From: a virus
Virus record (IMG/VR): IMGVR_UViG_3300035184_001224
Coordinates: 1 to 28,407 of that record
DNA length: 28,407 nucleotides
Reading direction: 5' to 3' (one strand)
Shown here: in pieces, positions 9,642 through 20,283 of the stretch
Position numbering within the stretch: position 1 is the first letter of the stretch
Layout of the letters: each line of letters starts with the position of its first letter
Notes under the pieces: generated by a model
The model's database searches: none
What the model was told of the DNA's origin: nothing
What the model saw: the letters and a program-made list of their open reading frames with translations, nothing else
Position numbers and translations under genes: made by a program

Positions 9642-9651
9642 GTATTTATAG
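9642..9651 (-). promoter_or_regulatory. Late promoter (CTATAAATAC) overlapping the Nudix stop codon
   Basis: On the minus strand CTATAAATAC contains a perfect T4 late TATAAATA. Its TAA is the Nudix stop codon. It would allow separate late expression of the gene at 8911-9606. Confidence 0.7.
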
Positions 9652-10071
9652 GGATTTTATGATTGATTTAAGTAGAGTTAACTTCTTTTTCTTGAATAAT
9701 GTTCTTTGTGCACCGGGATGCATGGGTTTTGGAAAATAATTGCTATCTAACCAAGCATACCCGCCACTTTCATCATTAATAGACGGAGTAAATTCTTTCT
9801 CGACTATTACTACAAATGTATAATAGCTAAATGATTTGTCTCTTGCGTGGTACTGGTCAAATGGAAATACCTTAATAACATCTTGTTTTATATTTAGATT
9901 TATTTCCTCTTCTAATTCACGTAATAACCCTTGTGACACATTCTCAGTGCCTTCTATTTTGCCACCCCAGAACGCCCAATTCCTAGCGTATGAGCCTTTT
10001 AATGAGCGATGCTGTAGTAGTATTCTTTGTGTATCTTTTGCAACTATACACGCGCCAGCGGCTTTGATCAT
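9646..10071 (-). CDS. Nudix hydrolase
   Basis: This is a 141-residue Nudix-fold pyrophosphohydrolase, which cleaves nucleoside diphosphates linked to another group (for example ADP-ribose, dinucleotides or oxidised NTPs). The Nudix box is readable from GKIEGTE through RELEEEINL: the first Gly, the Glu six residues later, and the metal-binding RExxEE core are present, while the usual late Gly is Asn. WAFWGGKIEG before it is typical. I start it at the ATG 10071-10069, giving MIKAAGACIVA. This ATG overlaps the TGA of gene 15 (ATGA), and GGAGG lies about 13 bases upstream. A longer frame exists but would lie inside gene 15. Substrate cannot be predicted. T4-like phages often carry a Nudix enzyme, though its place among neck genes is odd. 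Confidence 0.88.
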   Translation of the reverse strand: MIKAAGACIVAKDTQRILLQHRSLKGSYARNWAFWGGKIEGTENVSQGLLRELEEEINLNIKQDVIKVFPFDQYHARDKSFSYYTFVVIVEKEFTPSINDESGGYAWLDSNYFPKPMHPGAQRTLFKKKKLTLLKSIIKSL

Positions 10072-11465
10072 TCTGGTGCCTCTGCCTCCTGTACTAATTC
10101 TAGTCTCCAATAGCCTCCCTCGTATATTCCTTGGAAGGTATCTACCCATTCATTTTTTTCTAATTTAAATTGCTGTGATGAAAATACATTTGTCACAAAA
10201 TGATTGTCATCTGTTTCGCTTGCATCTAAACTAACAACCCACGCAACTCCATTGAATTCTATAATATCATTTGCTGATATAGGTATTCCCCATTCTGGCA
10301 ATGCTGTTTCCGCATTTAAACACATATATCTTTGACCTGCAGATGCAAACGGTAAATTACCAAAGCCAGGTTTACTGGTAGATGGATCTATAATTTTATC
10401 TACTGGTGCAAGTGTGTTGCCTGGTAATGTATCTACATCAATAAGAATAGATAGTACTCCCGGGTCATTTGTACGAGTTAGTGTGCCAATAATATCAGCA
10501 TCTACGTTCTCAAGTTGCTTATGGTATTTAAGTCGAATTCTAGAGACGCCTTCTGTTAAGTTCGCATAATTTGACAGTACTTCGTCCCATGTAGTGTTGT
10601 CGTCCCAATTCCCATTTTCAAGCACTTTGGCAGTAACCGTGCCGTTATCATTTATTACACTGATTGCATAATTTCCTGGCGTAACTACAATACTTGTTTC
10701 CACTTGTAAATCTCTGAAGAATTCAAATGCGTCTGGGTCATAATCTAGTGTGTCTATATCGTTATATTGGTACACATTGTGAATAATATTCCTGATAACA
10801 TTTTGTCTTGTTACGAGAGCCGGCGGATTTATCCAAATTGGTATTTGAAAAAATAAACTTGCAATATCAATTTGATCTTCGATGCCCGCAGGGATTGATC
10901 TGCTGGTCCACTGTATGTCAGTAAGCTCGACAGTAGTTATAGTTGTCCAATCTACTGGGTTATCATTTTGTTGTATCTCTAATGCTGGATTAAATAGAAC
11001 TAATATCTGTTCTAGTAGTTGCAACTTCTGATCTGTATTAGAAGTCCAAATATCAACTTGCATATTCAATACATATGGCACTGGCATCATTCTTCCGACA
11101 TTATACTTGTTACCAGGTTCATCAGTGTATGCACTTGCTACTGGGTCCCATTGTCTCTCATTGACCTTTACTGTGTCACTGAAAAATGGTTCTTGTAATC
11201 GCTGTCTATCTGGTTGAAGACTCTGAATATACGAAGATATAAATGGTGCGGAATTAACAATGTTTTCGCTGTTGCCTTTGAGAATAGTGGCAGCCATACG
11301 AGATACATCTCCGTATCTACTCGGTACTTTGATATAGTAATCAGATGTCCCATCATTTAGTTTCTTACCAGTTTTTACGTTGAAACCACTAAAGATGCGA
11401 ATGAATTGTAAAAGGTAGCGTCTTACTTGCTCATCGTAGAAGTGTAATTGTCTTAAATCTGCCAT
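10068..11465 (-). CDS. 15: Tail sheath stabiliser / tail completion protein gp15
   Basis: This 465-residue protein matches the T4 gp15 family, which forms the hexameric ring ending the tail at the head-proximal side and fixes the last sheath ring to the neck. The N-terminus HFYDEQVRRYLLQFIRIFSG parallels the T4 FYNSSFRRYATLMGDLFS region. Further family-like segments are KVPSRYGDVSRM, MMPVPYVLNMQVDIWTSN and LLEQILVLFNPALEI. It is longer than T4 gp15 (272 residues): a C-terminal extension follows about residue 245. I chose the ATG at 11465, four bases after the gene 14 stop with GAGG upstream, over a start at 11486 that overlaps gene 14. Its stop overlaps the Nudix start. Confidence 0.85.
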   Translation of the reverse strand: MADLRQLHFYDEQVRRYLLQFIRIFSGFNVKTGKKLNDGTSDYYIKVPSRYGDVSRMAATILKGNSENIVNSAPFISSYIQSLQPDRQRLQEPFFSDTVKVNERQWDPVASAYTDEPGNKYNVGRMMPVPYVLNMQVDIWTSNTDQKLQLLEQILVLFNPALEIQQNDNPVDWTTITTVELTDIQWTSRSIPAGIEDQIDIASLFFQIPIWINPPALVTRQNVIRNIIHNVYQYNDIDTLDYDPDAFEFFRDLQVETSIVVTPGNYAISVINDNGTVTAKVLENGNWDDNTTWDEVLSNYANLTEGVSRIRLKYHKQLENVDADIIGTLTRTNDPGVLSILIDVDTLPGNTLAPVDKIIDPSTSKPGFGNLPFASAGQRYMCLNAETALPEWGIPISANDIIEFNGVAWVVSLDASETDDNHFVTNVFSSQQFKLEKNEWVDTFQGIYEGGYWRLELVQEAEAPE

Positions 11466-12487: not shown

Positions 12488-12516
12488 TTGACTTGTCTCT
12501 GTATTTATCATATAAT
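12488..12516 (+). promoter_or_regulatory. Sigma70-type promoter for the 2OG-Fe(II) oxygenase gene
   Basis: TTGACT (12488-12493), a 17-base spacer and a perfect TATAAT (12511-12516) form a near-consensus host promoter. The expected RNA start is about 12523, leaving a leader of roughly 24 bases to the ATG at 12547. Confidence 0.8.
12501..12510 (-). promoter_or_regulatory. Late promoter (TGATAAATAC) for genes 14-15-Nudix
   Basis: The minus strand reads TGATAAATAC, 23 bases before the gene 14 start. It lies entirely inside the -35/-10 spacer of the opposing sigma70 promoter at 12488-12516. Confidence 0.75.
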
Positions 12517-12546
12517 ATAAAAGAACATATACCGGGAATAATAACC

Positions 12547-13251
12547 ATGATTGAATACTTAAATCGAAATAGTGCCGGAAACACTGTAATTAGAGACTTT
12601 CTATCACCTACGACTATACATCAATTTAAACTATGGGCAATGAATAACAACAATGCGCATCGTGGAAATGGAGTAGACGGTGAATACTACAATGAACATG
12701 ACGGTTCAAGGGAATATAATGTGTGGTGGACAACTCAACCACCAGCAGAGATGTGGTTGCCGCTTGTTTTAGAACTTACAACACACATCGACGCTCTATT
12801 TAGAACTACTAATTGGGAGACGCATGTAGTTGATTGTATTACTACACGTCCTCATAGCGACAAGATATATGCACACATTGATACTCCCTATCGTTTTGAA
12901 GAATTCGCAGATAGTACTGAAACATTAGGGGTACAAATTATTATTCCACTGGATAACTTCACGTTAGAGAATGGTGCAACTGCATATCTACCTGGCTCAC
13001 ATTTAGAGAATATAGATTTCAGAGATTTAGAAGACCGCCGCGAACATTATAATAATAGACTTACATCAGAAGGTCAGCAGTTTCTAGCGAATCCAGGTGA
13101 TGTGTTGATGTATGATGGCAGAACATTACATAGCACTATGCCTAACAACTCAGCAGATTTTCGTAGTGCATTGCTGATAAATGCACTTCGGCGAGATGTA
13201 ATTGATAGAGTACGAGAACTAGATAGTAACACTGATTTTGTAAAAACATAA
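12547..13251 (+). CDS. Fe(II)/2-oxoglutarate-dependent dioxygenase (PhyH-like)
   Basis: This 234-residue protein has the double-stranded beta-helix signature of Fe(II)/2OG oxygenases of the phytanoyl-CoA-dioxygenase type. H110-x-D112 (AHIDTPY) and H195 (LHSTMPN) can bind iron, and R206 (DFRSALL) can bind 2-oxoglutarate. LPGSH (148-152) and GDVLMYDGRTLHS are typical. These enzymes hydroxylate small molecules, proteins or nucleic acids; the substrate here cannot be read. I start it at the ATG 12547 (MIEYLNRN) with CCGGGAA upstream. A longer TTG start would lie inside the promoter. It has its own sigma70 promoter, unlike the neck genes on the other strand, so early or middle expression is likely. 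T4-like marine phages commonly carry such oxygenases. Confidence 0.85.
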   Translation: MIEYLNRNSAGNTVIRDFLSPTTIHQFKLWAMNNNNAHRGNGVDGEYYNEHDGSREYNVWWTTQPPAEMWLPLVLELTTHIDALFRTTNWETHVVDCITTRPHSDKIYAHIDTPYRFEEFADSTETLGVQIIIPLDNFTLENGATAYLPGSHLENIDFRDLEDRREHYNNRLTSEGQQFLANPGDVLMYDGRTLHSTMPNNSADFRSALLINALRRDVIDRVRELDSNTDFVKT

Positions 13252-14598: not shown

Positions 14599-15351
14599 AT
14601 GCCACAAGCAAGAAATAAAGTTAGAAATGATGTAATCAAGCAAATCAGATTGTTACTAGGTGACGGGATGATTGATATTGAATTGGATCCAGAGCATTAT
14701 GATATTGCTTTAGATGTTGCAATATCTAAAGTTCGCCAGCGTTCTGAGAATGCAGTTGAAGAAGACTATTATGCGCTAGAACTAAAAGAGGATGTAGCTG
14801 AATATACTCTTCCAGATGAAATCATGGAAGTAAAGCAAATCTGGAATCGTTCATTTGGCAATGGGGTTTCAGGTGGCGTTGATATGGATCCATTTGAACT
14901 TGCATATGCGAATTCGTACTTCTTTATGAACAATCATATTGGTGGCCTTGCAACTGCTGATTTCTTTGCGCAGTATCGCGAAACGCTTAACAAAGTAGCG
15001 GCAACTGATATTATGTATCTTTGGAATCCAGTCACAAAGAAAATCAAACTTCTACGTAGAATGAGACACGATACGCTAGTATTGATACATGTTTACTTAG
15101 AGCGTGATGAAGATCAATTAATGGTTGACCCATACTTAAAGTCCTGGATCAGAGATTATGCACTTGCATATTGTAAGCGTATGCTGGGAGAAGCACGTGG
15201 TAAGTTCTCTTCTCTACCCGGTGCACAAGGTGGAGTTACCTTGAATGGTGCTGAGATGAAAGCAGAAGCGGATGTATTAATAGAGAAGTTAGAATTTGAT
15301 CTAGCAAATTACGTAGATGGTTCCTCTCCATTAGGATTTATCATAGGCTGA
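14599..15351 (+). CDS. 13: Neck protein gp13
   Basis: This 250-residue protein fits the gp13 neck family, which with gp14 closes the filled head and receives the tail. Recognisable segments are the N-terminal helix with IELDPEHYDIALDVAISKVRQ (about 26-46), MDPFELAYANSYFFMNN (96-112), ATADFFAQYRETLN, IMYLWNPVTKKIKLLRRM, LIHVYLERDE and the C-terminal WIRDYALAYCKRMLGEARGKF followed by LPGAQGGVTLNGAEMKAEA. ATCGGAGAAC precedes the ATG. It is separated from gene 14 by two sigma70-driven genes and lies on the other strand, so the neck genes have been rearranged. Confidence 0.88.
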   Translation: MPQARNKVRNDVIKQIRLLLGDGMIDIELDPEHYDIALDVAISKVRQRSENAVEEDYYALELKEDVAEYTLPDEIMEVKQIWNRSFGNGVSGGVDMDPFELAYANSYFFMNNHIGGLATADFFAQYRETLNKVAATDIMYLWNPVTKKIKLLRRMRHDTLVLIHVYLERDEDQLMVDPYLKSWIRDYALAYCKRMLGEARGKFSSLPGAQGGVTLNGAEMKAEADVLIEKLEFDLANYVDGSSPLGFIIG

Positions 15352-15400: not shown

Positions 15401-15610
15401 ATGGATTTGATCGAACTTAAAAAAGTGAATGAGATGTTCTTCGCAGTCAAAGGACATTTATTCCCTACCACATACACTGTAAACGAGATGCGTAGTGTAT
15501 ATAATAGTTACTTTACTAGAATGTGGGGTAACAACGAATTTTACCTTCATGTAGAACAATTTGAAGATGTTTGGAAAAACAGAACGGCATGGCTAACTGC
15601 TACAATTTAA
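15401..15610 (+). CDS. Small hypothetical protein (69 aa)
   Basis: I do not recognise this 69-residue protein, which starts MDLIELKKVNEMFF and ends RTAWLTATI. It is rich in aromatic residues (YFTRMWGNNEFYLHVEQFEDVW) and has no signal peptide or membrane segment. The start is uncertain: the ATG at 15401 has AGG only one base upstream, the frame can be extended to a TTG at 15380, and an internal ATG lies at 15434. It follows gene 13 by 49 bases and precedes the alternative oxidase promoter. No clear promoter of its own is visible, so it may be co-transcribed with gene 13. Confidence 0.6.
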   Translation: MDLIELKKVNEMFFAVKGHLFPTTYTVNEMRSVYNSYFTRMWGNNEFYLHVEQFEDVWKNRTAWLTATI

Positions 15611-15614
15611 CGCA

Positions 15615-15643
15615 TTGATGTTTCATGTTTTCCGTGCTATATT
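15615..15643 (+). promoter_or_regulatory. Sigma70-type promoter for the alternative oxidase gene
   Basis: TTGATG (15615-15620), a 17-base spacer and TATATT (15638-15643). The predicted RNA start is about 10 bases before the ATG at 15659, a short leader. This is the weakest of the five sigma70 matches in the island. Confidence 0.6.
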
Positions 15644-15658
15644 CAGATAAGTATTAGC

Positions 15659-16270
15659 ATGAAACATTATACCCCTCAAACATTTGGTGACCGAGTAGCA
15701 CTTGGTATTACACTATTCCTGCGTTGGTTCGCAGACACATTCTTTGCTAAACGCTATGGACATCGTGCAGTTGTACTAGAAACAGTGGCTGGTGTTCCAG
15801 GCATGGTAGCAGGTATGTGGAGTCACTTGCGTAGTTTGCGTAAGATGCAACCAGATGACAGAGGGTGGATTAAAACACTATTAGAAGAAGCAGAAAACGA
15901 ACGTATGCATCTAATGATATTCATTGAGATTGCAAAGCCAAATTGGTTTGAGCGTACACTTATATTATTTGCGCAGTTTGTATTCTGGCATTTCTATTTT
16001 GTTCTTTATGTGTTGTTCCCAAAAGTAGCTCACCGTATGGTAGGTTATTTCGAAGAACAGGCAGTGGTAAGTTACACACAATACTTGGAACAAATCGACA
16101 CTGGTGCAGTTGAAAATATACCAGCACCACAAACAGCAATTGACTACTATAATTTGAAATCAGATGCTAGACTGCGTGATGTAGTTATAGCAGTTAGAGA
16201 AGATGAAAGAGGTCACAGTGAAGTTAATCATGGCATGGCTAACATCCTTGTTCAAGAAGCAAGCGACTAA
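15659..16270 (+). CDS. aox: Alternative oxidase (AOX), cyanide-insensitive quinol oxidase
   Basis: AOX is a membrane-bound di-iron enzyme that oxidises ubiquinol and reduces oxygen to water, bypassing complex III and cytochrome oxidase without pumping protons. The 203-residue protein carries all six expected metal ligands: E41 in LETVAGVPGMVAGM, E81 and H84 in EEAENERMHL, a Glu at 132/133 in FEEQAVVSYT, and E183 and H186 in REDERGHSEVNH. The conserved Tyr of SYT (139) is present. Family-type segments FADTFFAKRYGHRAVVLETV and VENIPAPQTAIDYY are also seen. Hydrophobic helices near 100-122 fit monotopic membrane binding. Length is normal for bacterial AOX. It is AOX rather than the plastid-type PTOX of cyanophages. 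The canonical DEAHH motif is DERGH, keeping the ligand residues. It overlaps a small downstream gene. Confidence 0.95.
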   Translation: MKHYTPQTFGDRVALGITLFLRWFADTFFAKRYGHRAVVLETVAGVPGMVAGMWSHLRSLRKMQPDDRGWIKTLLEEAENERMHLMIFIEIAKPNWFERTLILFAQFVFWHFYFVLYVLFPKVAHRMVGYFEEQAVVSYTQYLEQIDTGAVENIPAPQTAIDYYNLKSDARLRDVVIAVREDERGHSEVNHGMANILVQEASD

Positions 16271-16394
16271 TCCCGATCCAGAATTCGATCCAAGAATTCG
16301 TATCAATTCAGAAAACATGACAGACGTTGAAAAGATGGATGTCGGTTTTAACGGCAAAACATACACCAACAACGGTATTGAATCAGATTTTTAA
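16230..16394 (+). CDS. Small protein overlapping the 3' end of the alternative oxidase gene (54 aa)
   Basis: A 54-residue frame starts at an ATG inside the oxidase gene (MAWLTSLFKKQ) and ends 124 bases after the oxidase stop with GIESDF. The overlap is 41 bases. After a short hydrophobic and basic N-terminus it is polar: ATNPDPEFDPRIRI, then NMTDVEKMDVGFNGKTYTNN. The coding-like composition continues well past the oxidase stop, and without it the gap to the pseudoazurin gene would be unusually long, so I consider it real. No known domain is visible. The overlap suggests coupled translation with the oxidase. A link to oxidase function is speculation. Confidence 0.6.
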   Translation: MAWLTSLFKKQATNPDPEFDPRIRINSENMTDVEKMDVGFNGKTYTNNGIESDF

Positions 16395-16403
16395 TTTAAT
16401 TAC

Positions 16404-16431
16404 TTGACTATTGAACAAGCTAAACTATATA
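16404..16431 (+). promoter_or_regulatory. Sigma70-type promoter for the pseudoazurin gene
   Basis: TTGACT (16404-16409) is followed by the AT-rich run TATATATAATATAA. TATATA at 16426-16431 gives a 16-base spacer; other -10 registers are possible. The ATG is at 16460 with AGAGGA upstream. Confidence 0.72.
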
Positions 16432-16459
16432 TAATATAAACACACAAGAGGAAACTAAT

Positions 16460-16888
16460 ATGAAAACATTACTATCAACTGTAGCCGTGATGGTTGCATT
16501 AACTACTTCCGCATTTGCAGAAGATACAACTGTAGAAATGCTAAACAAGCGTGATGATGGCGCTAAAATGGTATACAGTGAAGACATCACACGCATTGAT
16601 GTAGGCGACACAGTAACATGGGTACCAACATCAAAAGGTCACAATGTAGAATTCATTGCTGGCCCAGAAGGCTTTGACATTCCAAAGAAATCAAAGAACA
16701 GCAAAGAAGTTGCTATTACGTTTGATACGCCAGGCATCTATTACTACTGGTGCACCCCGCATAAAGGCATGGGCATGATTGCTCTACTCGTTGTTGGCGA
16801 TGATACATCAAACATTGATGATATTACAAAAGCAAAAGCAGTAGGCAAATCAAAGAAGAAACTAAAAGAATTACTGTCACAGTTGTAA
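16460..16888 (+). CDS. Pseudoazurin (type 1 blue copper protein), periplasmic electron carrier
   Basis: Pseudoazurins are small periplasmic cupredoxins that carry electrons, classically from the cytochrome bc1 side to copper nitrite reductase, nitrous oxide reductase or terminal oxidases. The 142-residue protein has a clear signal peptide (MKTLLSTVAVMVALTTSAFA, cleavage after 20). The mature part begins with the family-typical EMLNKRDDGAKMVY. Copper ligands are H61 (SKGHNVEF), C98, H101 and M106 in WCTPHKGMGM. The GDTVTWVPTSKGHNVE stretch and the helical C-terminal tail (about 115-142, Lys-rich) are typical of pseudoazurin and not of plastocyanin. It has its own sigma70-like promoter and ribosome site (AAGAGGAAACT). 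The basic surface could dock acidic partners. Phage origin of electron flow through it is inferred from context. Confidence 0.93.
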   Translation: MKTLLSTVAVMVALTTSAFAEDTTVEMLNKRDDGAKMVYSEDITRIDVGDTVTWVPTSKGHNVEFIAGPEGFDIPKKSKNSKEVAITFDTPGIYYYWCTPHKGMGMIALLVVGDDTSNIDDITKAKAVGKSKKKLKELLSQL

Positions 16889-16895
16889 TTTTAAC

Positions 16896-16924
16896 TTGAC
16901 AAAATCAATCTGTGATGCTATACT
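16896..16924 (+). promoter_or_regulatory. Sigma70-type promoter for the dNMP-kinase-like gene
   Basis: Perfect TTGACA (16896-16901), a 17-base spacer and TATACT (16919-16924). The -10 lies in the loop of a 15-bp perfect inverted repeat, so the promoter is a candidate for repressor control. The ATG at 16957 has AAGGAAC upstream. Confidence 0.82.
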
Positions 16925-17604: not shown

Positions 17605-20283
17605 ATGGCGACATTAGTATCCCCCGGCGTATCAGTGATGGTTTCAGATGAATCACAATACGTAGCAGCTACACAAGGCACACTACCGTTAGTTGTAGTA
17701 GCAACCGCATCAAACAAAACAGATGGCTCAGGCTCAAAAATTGCAGCTGGCACAATTCCAGCAAATGCTGGCGTTGCATATCTAGTTTCCTCACAGCGGG
17801 AACTAGTAGAAACATTTGGTGAACCAAAGTTCTATCAAGTAGGCGGTTCAGTTGTACAAGGTGCAGAGACAAGCGAGTATGGTCTATTAACTGCGTATCA
17901 GTATCTAGGTGTTTCCAATAACGCTTATATCATTCGCGCTGATATCGATTTATCAGAACTAGAAGCGACCACGGTAGAACCATCAGGTGTACTAGAAGAC
18001 GGAACTTACTGGCATGAAATCGCAGACTCCGCATATGGTATTTTTGAACATGATGGTACCGACTGGGTAGCAGTAACACCAGCAGTATTAAATGATGCTC
18101 CTGGCACTGGCAATGTTGAATCAATGAATTCATCCGGTTATGCAGCCCCAGAAAACACATTCGGTTCAACTGGCGATATAGCAGTCGTTACTTCAACTGT
18201 AAAAATTACATATTGGAAAAAAGTAGGAACGTCATGGGTTCTACTAGGTGACGTAGGATCTCCGACATTTTCATTCAGTGCATATGCGCCAGCAGGTACA
18301 GTAGGTGATATATATGTGAGATTGACAAAACAGGGTGGTGGTCTTGACATCACGGTATCTACATATAATGCAGTTTCTGGAACATTCCAAGCATTGCAAG
18401 TTCCAGTATATTCGTCAGATGATGCTGCACATAATGTTGGATTAAACGTTGCGGGTGACACTTATTTGCAACTATACACCGATACAATGGGTGTCATTGT
18501 TTTACGTAGACATTCGGGTGCATCAACTATTTCACTACAAAGTGATACTGCTATGCCAACCACATCTTCAATTAGTGTAGCATTTAGTGTACTAGCTGAA
18601 GGCATGAATGCAACATTTGCCTTCACTACTATGACATTAGATTCGATTATTACTTCACTACAGTCAAATTCTGAATTGAATACAAATAACGTTAAAATTG
18701 AAAAAGTCGGTACAAACAAAATCAGATTTGTGAAAACTGATGGCAAAACAATGACACTTTCCTTCTCGTCTGGCGCAGCGGCTCTAGGCTTTACTGTATC
18801 AAACCTTGTTGAAGGTAGTGCATGGGATGATTTGACATATGAAGCAAATATAAACACCCCCAAAGGTGCTATTGATCCTGGTGCTCTGTGGTATAATGCA
18901 GATTTAGCAATTGAATTAATGCGCGTTGAATTTGTAGGCGGTGTTCAGCAGTGGGTAACATATGCATGGTCAGAAGACCAAGATGGCATCTACGGTAATG
19001 AACTACAACTGCGTTCAACAAAGCCGACTGTGCGTAAAGATGGATCAACTGTTCTAGTAGCAGGTGATATCTGGGTAGATGGCGATGCAGTACCGTATCC
19101 AACAATCTATCGCTGGAGTGGCACGACATGGGTAAAACTAGACGGTGCTGATCAATCTTCTGTTAACGGTGTTTTATTTGGTAACTATTCAAATGATGCT
19201 CCGTATGATGAGTTTGGAAATGCAAATGCACGTACTGAACATGCAAACACGCCAAATGCAGAGTTGCTACCAGAAAACATTCTAATGGTAAACATGGATT
19301 ATTCTACTTATAATGTTAAGCAGTATACCGATGGCGCATGGGAGTGGGTTTCAGGAGTCAATCTAGATGGTTCTGGTAAGTTTGGCACAGACGCACAACG
19401 TCACATGGTAACAGAAGCAATGAGTGCTGCACTTGCAGGCAACGAGGGTATTCGTGCAGAAGCAGTATACTTCAACTTAATTGCAGCACCTGGTTATCCT
19501 GAATTGACTGATGAAATGATTGGTCTAAACAAGGACAAGAAAGAAATCGCATTTGTAGTTGGTGACACTCCACTAAAACTTAAAGGCGACACTACTTCTC
19601 TCAAGGCGTGGGCAGATAACAATACAAACATCGATGCTTATGCAGGTGTGTATTACCCACATGGACTATCAACTGATTTGTCTGGCAACGATGTAGTGAT
19701 GCCAGCATCTGCTATCGCACTACGTACAATTGCTTTCTCTGATCAGGTATCATTCCCTTGGTTCGCTCCTGCGGGCCTAACACGCGGTATCGTTACTAAC
19801 GCATCACAAGTTGGCTATGTAAATGATGAAAATGAATTCGTTCGTGTTCGTCTAACTGAAGGTCAGCGTGACGTGATGTATACAAATCGTATGAACCCAA
19901 TTGCAGATATGCCAGGTACTGGTCTAGTTGTATATGGTCAGAAAACAATGCAATCATTTGCATCTGCACTAGATCGTATTAACGTTGCAAGACTAGTTAA
20001 CCATATGCGTTATAGTCTAGATCAATTGTCACGTGGTTTCTTGTTTGAGCAGAATGATAAAATCACACGTGATAACATGCGTGATGCAGTAGAACGTTTC
20101 TGTGGCGGACTAGTGAGTAATAGAGGTCTATATGACTTCTTGGTTGTATGTGATGAATCAAACAACACTCCAGCACGTATTGATAGAAACGAACTATGGG
20201 TAGATATTGCAATTCAACCAGTAAAGTCAGTTGAATTTATCTATATCCCACTACGTATTCGTAATACAGGTGAAGAACTATAA
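17605..20283 (+). CDS. 18: Tail sheath protein gp18
   Basis: This is the contractile tail sheath subunit. The N-terminus MATLVSPGVSVMVSDES (1-17) is the usual sheath arm start, followed by a core segment with VSSQRELVETFGEP and LLTAYQYLGVSNNAYIIRAD. The C-terminal third is diagnostic: FAPAGLTRGIV, LNPI-type NRMNPIADMPGTGLVVYGQKT, RINVARLVNHMRYSLDQ, FLFEQNDKITRDNMRDAVERF and a final VKSVEFIYIPLRI. At 892 residues it is longer than T4 gp18 (659); residues about 120-500 look like inserted surface domains, including a TIYRWSGTTWVKLDG module. AAGGAGA precedes the ATG by six bases. It has its own late promoter and a terminator, so it is a one-gene unit. Confidence 0.93.
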   Translation: MATLVSPGVSVMVSDESQYVAATQGTLPLVVVATASNKTDGSGSKIAAGTIPANAGVAYLVSSQRELVETFGEPKFYQVGGSVVQGAETSEYGLLTAYQYLGVSNNAYIIRADIDLSELEATTVEPSGVLEDGTYWHEIADSAYGIFEHDGTDWVAVTPAVLNDAPGTGNVESMNSSGYAAPENTFGSTGDIAVVTSTVKITYWKKVGTSWVLLGDVGSPTFSFSAYAPAGTVGDIYVRLTKQGGGLDITVSTYNAVSGTFQALQVPVYSSDDAAHNVGLNVAGDTYLQLYTDTMGVIVLRRHSGASTISLQSDTAMPTTSSISVAFSVLAEGMNATFAFTTMTLDSIITSLQSNSELNTNNVKIEKVGTNKIRFVKTDGKTMTLSFSSGAAALGFTVSNLVEGSAWDDLTYEANINTPKGAIDPGALWYNADLAIELMRVEFVGGVQQWVTYAWSEDQDGIYGNELQLRSTKPTVRKDGSTVLVAGDIWVDGDAVPYPTIYRWSGTTWVKLDGADQSSVNGVLFGNYSNDAPYDEFGNANARTEHANTPNAELLPENILMVNMDYSTYNVKQYTDGAWEWVSGVNLDGSGKFGTDAQRHMVTEAMSAALAGNEGIRAEAVYFNLIAAPGYPELTDEMIGLNKDKKEIAFVVGDTPLKLKGDTTSLKAWADNNTNIDAYAGVYYPHGLSTDLSGNDVVMPASAIALRTIAFSDQVSFPWFAPAGLTRGIVTNASQVGYVNDENEFVRVRLTEGQRDVMYTNRMNPIADMPGTGLVVYGQKTMQSFASALDRINVARLVNHMRYSLDQLSRGFLFEQNDKITRDNMRDAVERFCGGLVSNRGLYDFLVVCDESNNTPARIDRNELWVDIAIQPVKSVEFIYIPLRIRNTGEEL

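What the first reader, a model, noticed from the sequence alone, without database searches (positions are those of the whole stretch)
16460..16888. Phage-encoded pseudoazurin with intact signal peptide and copper site
H61, C98, H101 and M106 form a complete type 1 copper site, and the EMLNK start and Lys-rich tail match pseudoazurin rather than plastocyanin. Pseudoazurin feeds copper nitrite reductase, nitrous oxide reductase or cytochrome oxidases. A phage copy could redirect periplasmic electron flow, possibly including denitrification steps, during infection.
Basis: partly seen in the sequence, partly recalled or inferred. Interest (0 to 1): 0.9.

Follow-up and report, generated by a model that had tools for sequence, protein, structure and literature searches.

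The report
Phage cassette for respiratory electron disposal
A large ocean bacterial virus carries, side by side, a copper electron-carrier protein and an enzyme that passes respiratory electrons straight to oxygen, apparently a swappable cassette for steering an infected bacterium's breathing, much as known viruses of photosynthetic cyanobacteria steer photosynthesis.

Summary
In detail: 16460-16888 (+) encodes a 142-aa exported pseudoazurin-type cupredoxin with an intact type 1 copper site, inside a T4-like jumbo-phage structural region, so it is not host contamination. A conserved 54-aa ORF (16230-16394) lies between. The three sit in a hotspot between head-tail adaptor and tail sheath. Among relatives with 95-99% identical adaptor DNA the slot holds AOX+pseudoazurin, AOX alone, DoxX+pseudoazurin, or neither. 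AOX and DoxX were never found together there and begin at the same spot. A bacterial chromosome also has an overlapping AOX-pseudoazurin pair. Phage copies are under purifying selection. Denitrification is not supported: none of 50 bacterial genomes with the closest pseudoazurins has NirK over cut-off; of 48 of them re-searched, none has NosZ or cbb3 oxidase over cut-off, while 37 show aa3 cytochrome oxidase. Best reading: a mobile cassette that keeps electrons leaving the quinone pool of an aerobic marine alphaproteobacterium during infection, the respiratory counterpart of the cyanophage plastocyanin + PTOX cassette. Function and host are inferred, not shown.

The parts
14599..15351 (+). Head-tail adaptor (phrog_211, Ad2): left border of the hotspot
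   Evidence: 5.3e-33; the left border in all relatives compared
15401..15610 (+). Small phage ORF (69 aa from ATG; 76 aa from GTG 15380) whose C-terminus looks cut short at the junction with the AOX cassette
   Evidence: Relatives L297 and L088 have 88 aa and end ...VAHLGYD. The window copy ends in GGCTAACTGCTACAATTTAA, which in L083/L084/L086 directly follows the adaptor gene
15615..15643 (+). Promoter-like site TTGATG-17-TATATT with TG before the second hexamer, upstream of AOX
   Evidence: 9 of 12 matches; conserved in L083, L084, L086. Consensus match only
15659..16270 (+). Alternative oxidase (AOX), 203 aa, di-iron quinol oxidase
   Evidence: PF01786 8.1e-82; E41, E81, H84, E132, E183, H186 invariant; fold matches are trypanosome alternative oxidase
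16230..16394 (+). Conserved small ORF, 54 aa (..INSENMTDVEKMDVGFNGKTYTNNGIESDF), overlapping the AOX 3' end by 41 nt
   Evidence: Conserved behind AOX in L083, L086, L087 and behind DoxX in L311, L331. Function unknown; only a sub-threshold Pfam match
16404..16435 (+). Possible promoter for the pseudoazurin gene (TTGACT ... TATATATAAT)
   Evidence: Read by eye. TTGACT and a downstream TATA-rich stretch are shared with L083/L084 and TTGACA..TATA with L331. Not listed by the scan, whose spacer limit is 16-18
16460..16888 (+). Pseudoazurin-type blue copper protein, 142 aa, with signal peptide; ligands H61, C98, H101, M106
16896..16924 (+). Promoter-like site TTGACA-17-TATACT (11 of 12, TG before second hexamer) between pseudoazurin and the next phage gene
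16957..17487 (+). Phage gene, possibly a (deoxy)nucleotide kinase; resumes the phage backbone
   Evidence: Conserved in the lineage; only a weak Pfam hit to DNMK, 0.026
17605..20283 (+). Tail sheath: right border of the hotspot
   Evidence: phrog_10581 1.3e-225; closest isolates are PA5oct-like jumbo phages, 39-40% identity

Best explanation
The gene is one element of a mobile respiratory cassette carried by marine jumbo T4-like phages, probably of an aerobic alphaproteobacterium. SHOWN from sequence: an exported pseudoazurin-type copper protein with intact ligands; an adjacent AOX with all di-iron ligands; a conserved small ORF between them; same-strand order, promoter-like sites before AOX and in front of the next gene; purifying selection; movement in and out of one genomic slot; replacement of AOX by a DoxX-family membrane protein beside pseudoazurin. 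INFERRED mechanism: AOX in the cytoplasmic membrane oxidises ubiquinol directly with O2 without pumping protons, and pseudoazurin in the periplasm adds haem-free carriers between the bc1 complex and the host aa3 cytochrome oxidase. Both keep the quinone pool oxidised while host gene expression is shut down, so that NADH re-oxidation and precursor metabolism continue for phage synthesis. Neither needs haem or cytochrome c maturation. DoxX, found in the same slot of related phages, would be another quinone-linked partner.
For: Pseudoazurin identity. AOX identity. Adjacency also in phages with other surroundings: L094 (12-nt gap), L105 (overlap by the ORF caller's start). Chromosomal pair: L291, whose AOX and pseudoazurin overlap by 4 nt between housekeeping-like genes, that pseudoazurin passing the curated cut-off at 127 bits. 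Partner swap: AOX or DoxX starts 66 nt after the adaptor and is followed by the same small ORF, with pseudoazurin next or near. Toggling of the slot among phages with 95-99% identical adaptor DNA. In the wider phage set DoxX is the next gene after pseudoazurin in 34 of 77 loci, usually with start and stop codons touching or overlapping. A COX subunit IV-like ORF near pseudoazurin in many loci (sub-threshold). dN/dS 0.07-0.16 for pseudoazurin and 0.03-0.11 for AOX. Genomes with the closest pseudoazurins have aa3 but no NirK, cbb3 or NosZ over cut-off. Functional parallel: the cyanophage petE-petF-PTOX cassette in S-SM2 (PMC3037559).
Against: No expression, proteomic or biochemical data. The host is not identified: the only hints are the nearest homologues (Rhodobacteraceae) and a pseudoazurin that is a mosaic. 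AOX and pseudoazurin are not consecutive in any textbook pathway. Several relatives carry AOX without pseudoazurin (L086, L087, L088), and only 3 of 50 genomes with the closest pseudoazurin also have AOX, so the two are not obligate partners. Promoter matches are consensus only. Electron transfer from pseudoazurin to aa3 is assumed. The AOX model is of middling confidence (pLDDT 77).
Confidence: 0.6

Rival explanations
1. Pseudoazurin and AOX are unrelated passengers: the adaptor-sheath slot is an insertion hotspot that collects useful metabolic genes singly, and their adjacency has no joint meaning, though each works on its own.
For: AOX without pseudoazurin in L086, L087, L088; pseudoazurin without AOX in L311, L324, L331 and most other phages. 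In the window the two are 189 nt apart, probably with separate promoters.
Against: AOX next to pseudoazurin recurs in different phage backgrounds and in a bacterial chromosome with overlapping reading frames. The recognisable non-backbone genes in the slot point to the respiratory chain (AOX, DoxX, pseudoazurin, COX IV-like).
Confidence: 0.28
2. One reading: pseudoazurin feeds copper nitrite reductase or nitrous oxide reductase, so the phage boosts denitrification.
For: The best-studied pseudoazurins donate to NirK and NosZ (general knowledge). Some SAR11 genomes have pseudoazurin in a nirK-cbb3 region (PMC12816887). A viral nirK-norB pair is known from oxygen-depleted waters (PMC8115048).
Against: 0 of 50 genomes with the closest pseudoazurins have NirK over cut-off. 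Of the 48 re-searched, 0 have NosZ and 0 have cbb3 over cut-off, while 37 show aa3 CoxA. The partner gene is an O2-reducing oxidase. No nitrogen gene was recognised in the window (by eye).
Confidence: 0.08
3. Stress defence: AOX (insensitive to NO, sulphide and cyanide) relieves reactive oxygen or a poisoned cytochrome oxidase during lysis, and the copper protein buffers copper or carries electrons to a periplasmic peroxidase.
For: AOX is classically a stress-relief oxidase (general knowledge); DoxX-family proteins have been linked to redox homeostasis (general knowledge, not tested here). The AOX itself is present and complete.
Against: No peroxidase, copper exporter or chaperone was recognised in the cassette. 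Little separates this from the best explanation at the sequence level.
Confidence: 0.12
4. Host contamination or a wrongly joined contig.
For: The closest single homologue is a bacterial chromosomal gene (L163, 83% identity over the full length).
Against: The same genes stand in the same slot of independent contigs L083, L084, L086, L088, L311, L324, L331 between phage adaptor and sheath genes; regional G+C does not change (0.376-0.385).
Confidence: 0.01

Closest known systems
Cyanophage petE (plastocyanin) + PTOX cassette, e.g. Synechococcus phage S-SM2 (petE-petF-PTOX)
   Same: T4-like marine phages carrying, close together, a small exported copper carrier and an AOX-superfamily quinol oxidase, proposed as a mobile cassette that stops electrons backing up (PMC3037559)
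   Different: Window AOX vs S-SM2 PTOX is 22% identical, E 0.04; window pseudoazurin vs PetE 30%. Different genes, a probably non-photosynthetic setting, a different phage lineage and DoxX as an alternative partner. PMC3037559 found petE and PTOX only in cyanophages among 26 T4-like genomes
Bacterial pseudoazurin (NCBIfam TIGR02375; e.g. PDB 1bqk, 1paz, 3tu6)
   Same: Fold, four copper ligands, signal peptide, two C-terminal helices; 38-43% identity to solved structures
   Different: 106.7 bits against the curated cut-off of 109.85; the nearest chromosomal homologue L163 (106.4) also falls short. Marine alphaproteobacterial subfamily not linked to nirK/nosZ here
Alternative oxidase (PF01786)
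   Same: Full-length match, all di-iron ligands, fold of trypanosome alternative oxidase
   Different: Viral copies group apart from ordinary alphaproteobacterial AOX (starred branch) and read LETVAGVPGMVAG where most bacterial ones read LETVAAVP
Phage C48C1 (OQ984149.1) AOX
   Same: Only record in the phage collection with a recognisable AOX relative (57.5% identity)
   Different: Annotated hypothetical; beside clamp-loader genes; no Copper-bind gene in the whole record

Membership tests
Pseudoazurin | Type 1 copper ligands His-Cys-His-Met in GHN...CxPHxxMGM arrangement | tested here: met
   H61, C98, H101, M106 invariant; 85 of 85 viral homologues keep the motif
Pseudoazurin | Cupredoxin barrel followed by two C-terminal helices | tested here: met
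   AF2 helices 119-123 and 130-141; top 27 PDB fold matches are pseudoazurins
Pseudoazurin | Score above the curated NCBIfam equivalog cut-off (TIGR02375, 109.85 bits) | tested here: not met
   106.7 bits; the nearest chromosomal relative also falls just short (106.4). Hence 'pseudoazurin-type'
Pseudoazurin | Export to the periplasm by a signal peptide | tested here: inconclusive
   Signal-peptide-like N-terminus by eye (MKTLLSTVAVMVALTTSAFA); no predictor run
Pseudoazurin | Blue copper absorption and one-electron transfer | not testable with these tools
   -
Plastocyanin / cyanophage PetE | Closer to plastocyanin than to pseudoazurin | tested here: not met
   39.6 vs 106.7 bits; PetE hits about 30% identity; plastocyanins rank below all pseudoazurins in the fold search
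Alternative oxidase (PF01786) | Score over family cut-off with complete di-iron ligand set | tested here: met
   274.5 vs 22.7 bits; ligands invariant
Alternative oxidase (PF01786) | Cyanide-insensitive quinol oxidase activity | not testable with these tools
   -
Cyanophage PTOX | Recognisable sequence kinship with cyanophage PTOX | tested here: not met
   22% identity, E 0.04; no PTOX record hit at E 1e-3
Phage auxiliary metabolic gene | Host-type metabolic gene embedded in phage genes, conserved in related phages, under purifying selection | tested here: met
Phage auxiliary metabolic gene | Expressed during infection and changes host metabolism | not testable with these tools
Denitrification electron donor (NirK/NosZ partner) | Nearest homologues occur with nirK or nosZ | tested here: not met
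   0 of 50 with NirK and 0 of 48 with NosZ over cut-off

The most novel reading that the evidence does not exclude
Pseudoazurin, an interchangeable quinone-linked membrane protein (AOX or DoxX) and the conserved 54-aa protein form a phage-borne respiratory bypass module, not described before, which phages of heterotrophic marine bacteria exchange as a cassette, so that viruses control the exit of respiratory electrons to oxygen in infected bacterioplankton.
Probability: 0.3. Interest if true: 0.85.

Novelty: new variant of a known kind. Interest (0 to 1): 0.7.

Why it matters
Viral takeover of electron transport is well documented for cyanophages and photosynthesis. This points to a parallel solution in viruses of heterotrophs: single-gene oxidases and haem-free carriers that act on respiration. 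At least 380 viral stretches encode relatives of this pseudoazurin and 102 encode relatives of this AOX in IMG/VR, so infected cells could consume oxygen and carbon with lower energy yield, which bears on how virus infection enters marine respiration budgets. The near-identical phages with and without the cassette (L083, L086, L313, L311) are a natural comparison set. In the papers searched I found no report of phage pseudoazurin and AOX only in the PTOX setting, but the library lacks most subscription papers.

Tried and rejected
Plastocyanin/PetE origin: rejected. PTOX origin of the oxidase: rejected. Host contamination: rejected by repeated synteny. Denitrification: not supported. T4 late-promoter motif TATAAATA: not enriched, 85 found vs 75 expected with one mismatch. 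A tree put window pseudoazurin with Ascidiaceihabitans and the sister phage L084 elsewhere, but identity along the gene shows a mosaic, so I do not claim two independent acquisitions. DoxX alignment against PDB sequences: no significant hit; no NCBIfam hit. No CRISPR-spacer host search was possible.

Full report
Observation. The ORF 16460-16888 (+) is real and reads as described. It is a pseudoazurin-type cupredoxin: PF00127 4.4e-16; NCBIfam pseudoazurin 106.7 bits, far ahead of amicyanin and plastocyanin but 3 bits under the curated cut-off, as is its nearest chromosomal relative; all best PDB sequence hits and the 27 best fold matches are pseudoazurins. The copper ligands H61, C98, H101 and M106 are invariant and the motif is kept in all 85 viral homologues read.

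The neighbour. Between the two lies a 54-aa ORF (16230-16394) conserved in relatives. Promoter-like sites stand before AOX and after pseudoazurin, with a third possible one before pseudoazurin seen by eye and partly shared with sister phages. The right-hand one matches the sigma-70 consensus in 11 of 12 positions. The region holds 19 such matches against 12.1 expected, so single sites prove nothing.

The carrier. The window is a 28.4-kb IMG/VR record. It is a T4-like myovirus: capsid protein end, adaptor, sheath, tube, head closure. Its sheath and head-closure proteins are closest to jumbo phages such as PA5oct (39.6% and 49%), and relatives with a similar adaptor include contigs of 246 and 342 kb. 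The gene is flanked by adaptor and sheath on this and on independent contigs, which rules out host contamination.

A hotspot with exchangeable contents. I compared the stretch between adaptor and sheath in the window and in 81 related loci, two of them duplicates of others. Most have only a small backbone gene or two. Some have AOX + small ORF + pseudoazurin (window, L083, L084), AOX without pseudoazurin (L086, L087, L088), DoxX + small ORF + pseudoazurin (L311, L330, L331, the last two with a COX IV-like ORF), or pseudoazurin + DoxX (L324, L327-L329). AOX and DoxX were not seen together. In L083, L084, L086, L087, L311 and L331 either one starts 66 nt after the adaptor and is followed by the same small ORF. 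Phages whose adaptor genes are 95-99% identical in DNA differ in slot content: L083 AOX+pseudoazurin, L086 AOX, L313 neither, L311 DoxX+pseudoazurin. L324 type (95% to L326) carries pseudoazurin+DoxX, L326 neither.

Recent transfer. AOX synonymous divergence between the window and L083/L086 is 0.48/0.35, against 1.87 for the adaptor next door. The window's small ORF 15401-15610 is cut short at a stretch that in L083 directly follows the adaptor gene. Both fit a recent import of the AOX segment. Pseudoazurin is a mosaic: its second 60-nt block is 92-93% identical to L083/L331, while blocks further on are closer to Ascidiaceihabitans L163 or virus L032.

Wider distribution. IMG/VR holds at least 380 stretches encoding relatives of the pseudoazurin and 102 of the AOX. 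Of 50 AOX records searched whole, 3 also have a Copper-bind gene; of 50 records from the pseudoazurin side, 2 have AOX, both among those first fetched through AOX. So the pair is a minority state. In 77 pseudoazurin loci DoxX is the next gene in 34, with start and stop codons usually touching or overlapping. AOX is the gene before pseudoazurin in 5. On a bacterial contig (L291, a MAG named Rickettsiales bacterium SP101, between a pyruvate-kinase-like gene and glycine-cleavage-like genes by eye) AOX and pseudoazurin overlap by 4 nt. In single cell AG-325-G13 (L292) pseudoazurin and DoxX are adjacent, with AOX about 4 kb away.

Origin. The nearest bacterial pseudoazurins are from Rhodobacteraceae (Ascidiaceihabitans; 83% full length; 90% over the mature part) on contigs where no phage backbone gene was recognised. 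The tree needs at least 4 exchanges between viral and bacterial labels on starred branches (few columns, quick method). Viral AOX mostly form their own group apart from ordinary alphaproteobacterial AOX. Among the exceptions are L249, part of a phage-like contig in a MAG, and L271/L293 on a 2.75-Mb contig. A host among marine alphaproteobacteria is likely but not shown.

Function. The aa3 result shows that the searches had power in these partly incomplete genomes. This favours aerobic respiration with aa3, although a nirK-cbb3 region with pseudoazurin exists in some SAR11 (PMC12816887). I infer that AOX gives quinol a direct exit to O2 and that pseudoazurin adds carriers toward aa3. Which proteins exchange electrons is not shown.

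Comparison. Cyanophages carry petE and PTOX together (S-SM2: petE-petF-PTOX), described as a possible mobile cassette that prevents electrons from backing up (PMC3037559). The window works like that cassette but is not a member: AOX vs PTOX 22%, pseudoazurin vs PetE 30%. I rate it a new variant of a known kind.

Noticed in passing
window 16230-16394: Conserved 54-aa ORF of unknown function that follows AOX in some phages and DoxX in others; the constant element of the cassette.
   Followed up: partly
L021:7738-7953 and L331:10060-10257: Short single-membrane-span ORFs resembling bacterial aa3 cytochrome oxidase subunit IV (PF07835, just under cut-off), often near phage pseudoazurin.
   Followed up: partly
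L124:10243-11439: Phage-borne 5-aminolevulinate synthase (TIGR01821, 582 bits), a member of a cluster found in 19 AOX or pseudoazurin phage loci.
   Followed up: no
L001:14962-15513 (phage C48C1, WJE87901.1): Alternative oxidase annotated as hypothetical protein in a public phage genome.
   Followed up: yes
L293:8019-12041: Virus-type AOX (LETVAGVPGMVAG) on a 2.75-Mb bacterial contig beside MotA/MotB-like genes that look like a Zorya-type defence system (by eye).
   Followed up: no
L166 and L184: MAGs named Muricauda and Neomarinimicrobiota contain contigs with many phage-cluster genes, so probably misbinned phages.
   Followed up: partly
window 12493-13251: PhyH-type 2-oxoglutarate dioxygenase (1.5e-17), conserved beside the adaptor in nearly all relatives.
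   Followed up: no
window 9646-10149 (-): NUDIX hydrolase (4.5e-16) beside minus-strand virion genes in an otherwise plus-strand structural region.
   Followed up: no
L126:2079-2870 (cluster of 32): Secreted, possibly beta-barrel protein with signal peptide (by eye), common in AOX and pseudoazurin phages; no Pfam match.
   Followed up: no
L032:7521-7766: DUF1127 small proteins (4.1e-12) often just upstream of phage AOX or pseudoazurin.
   Followed up: no
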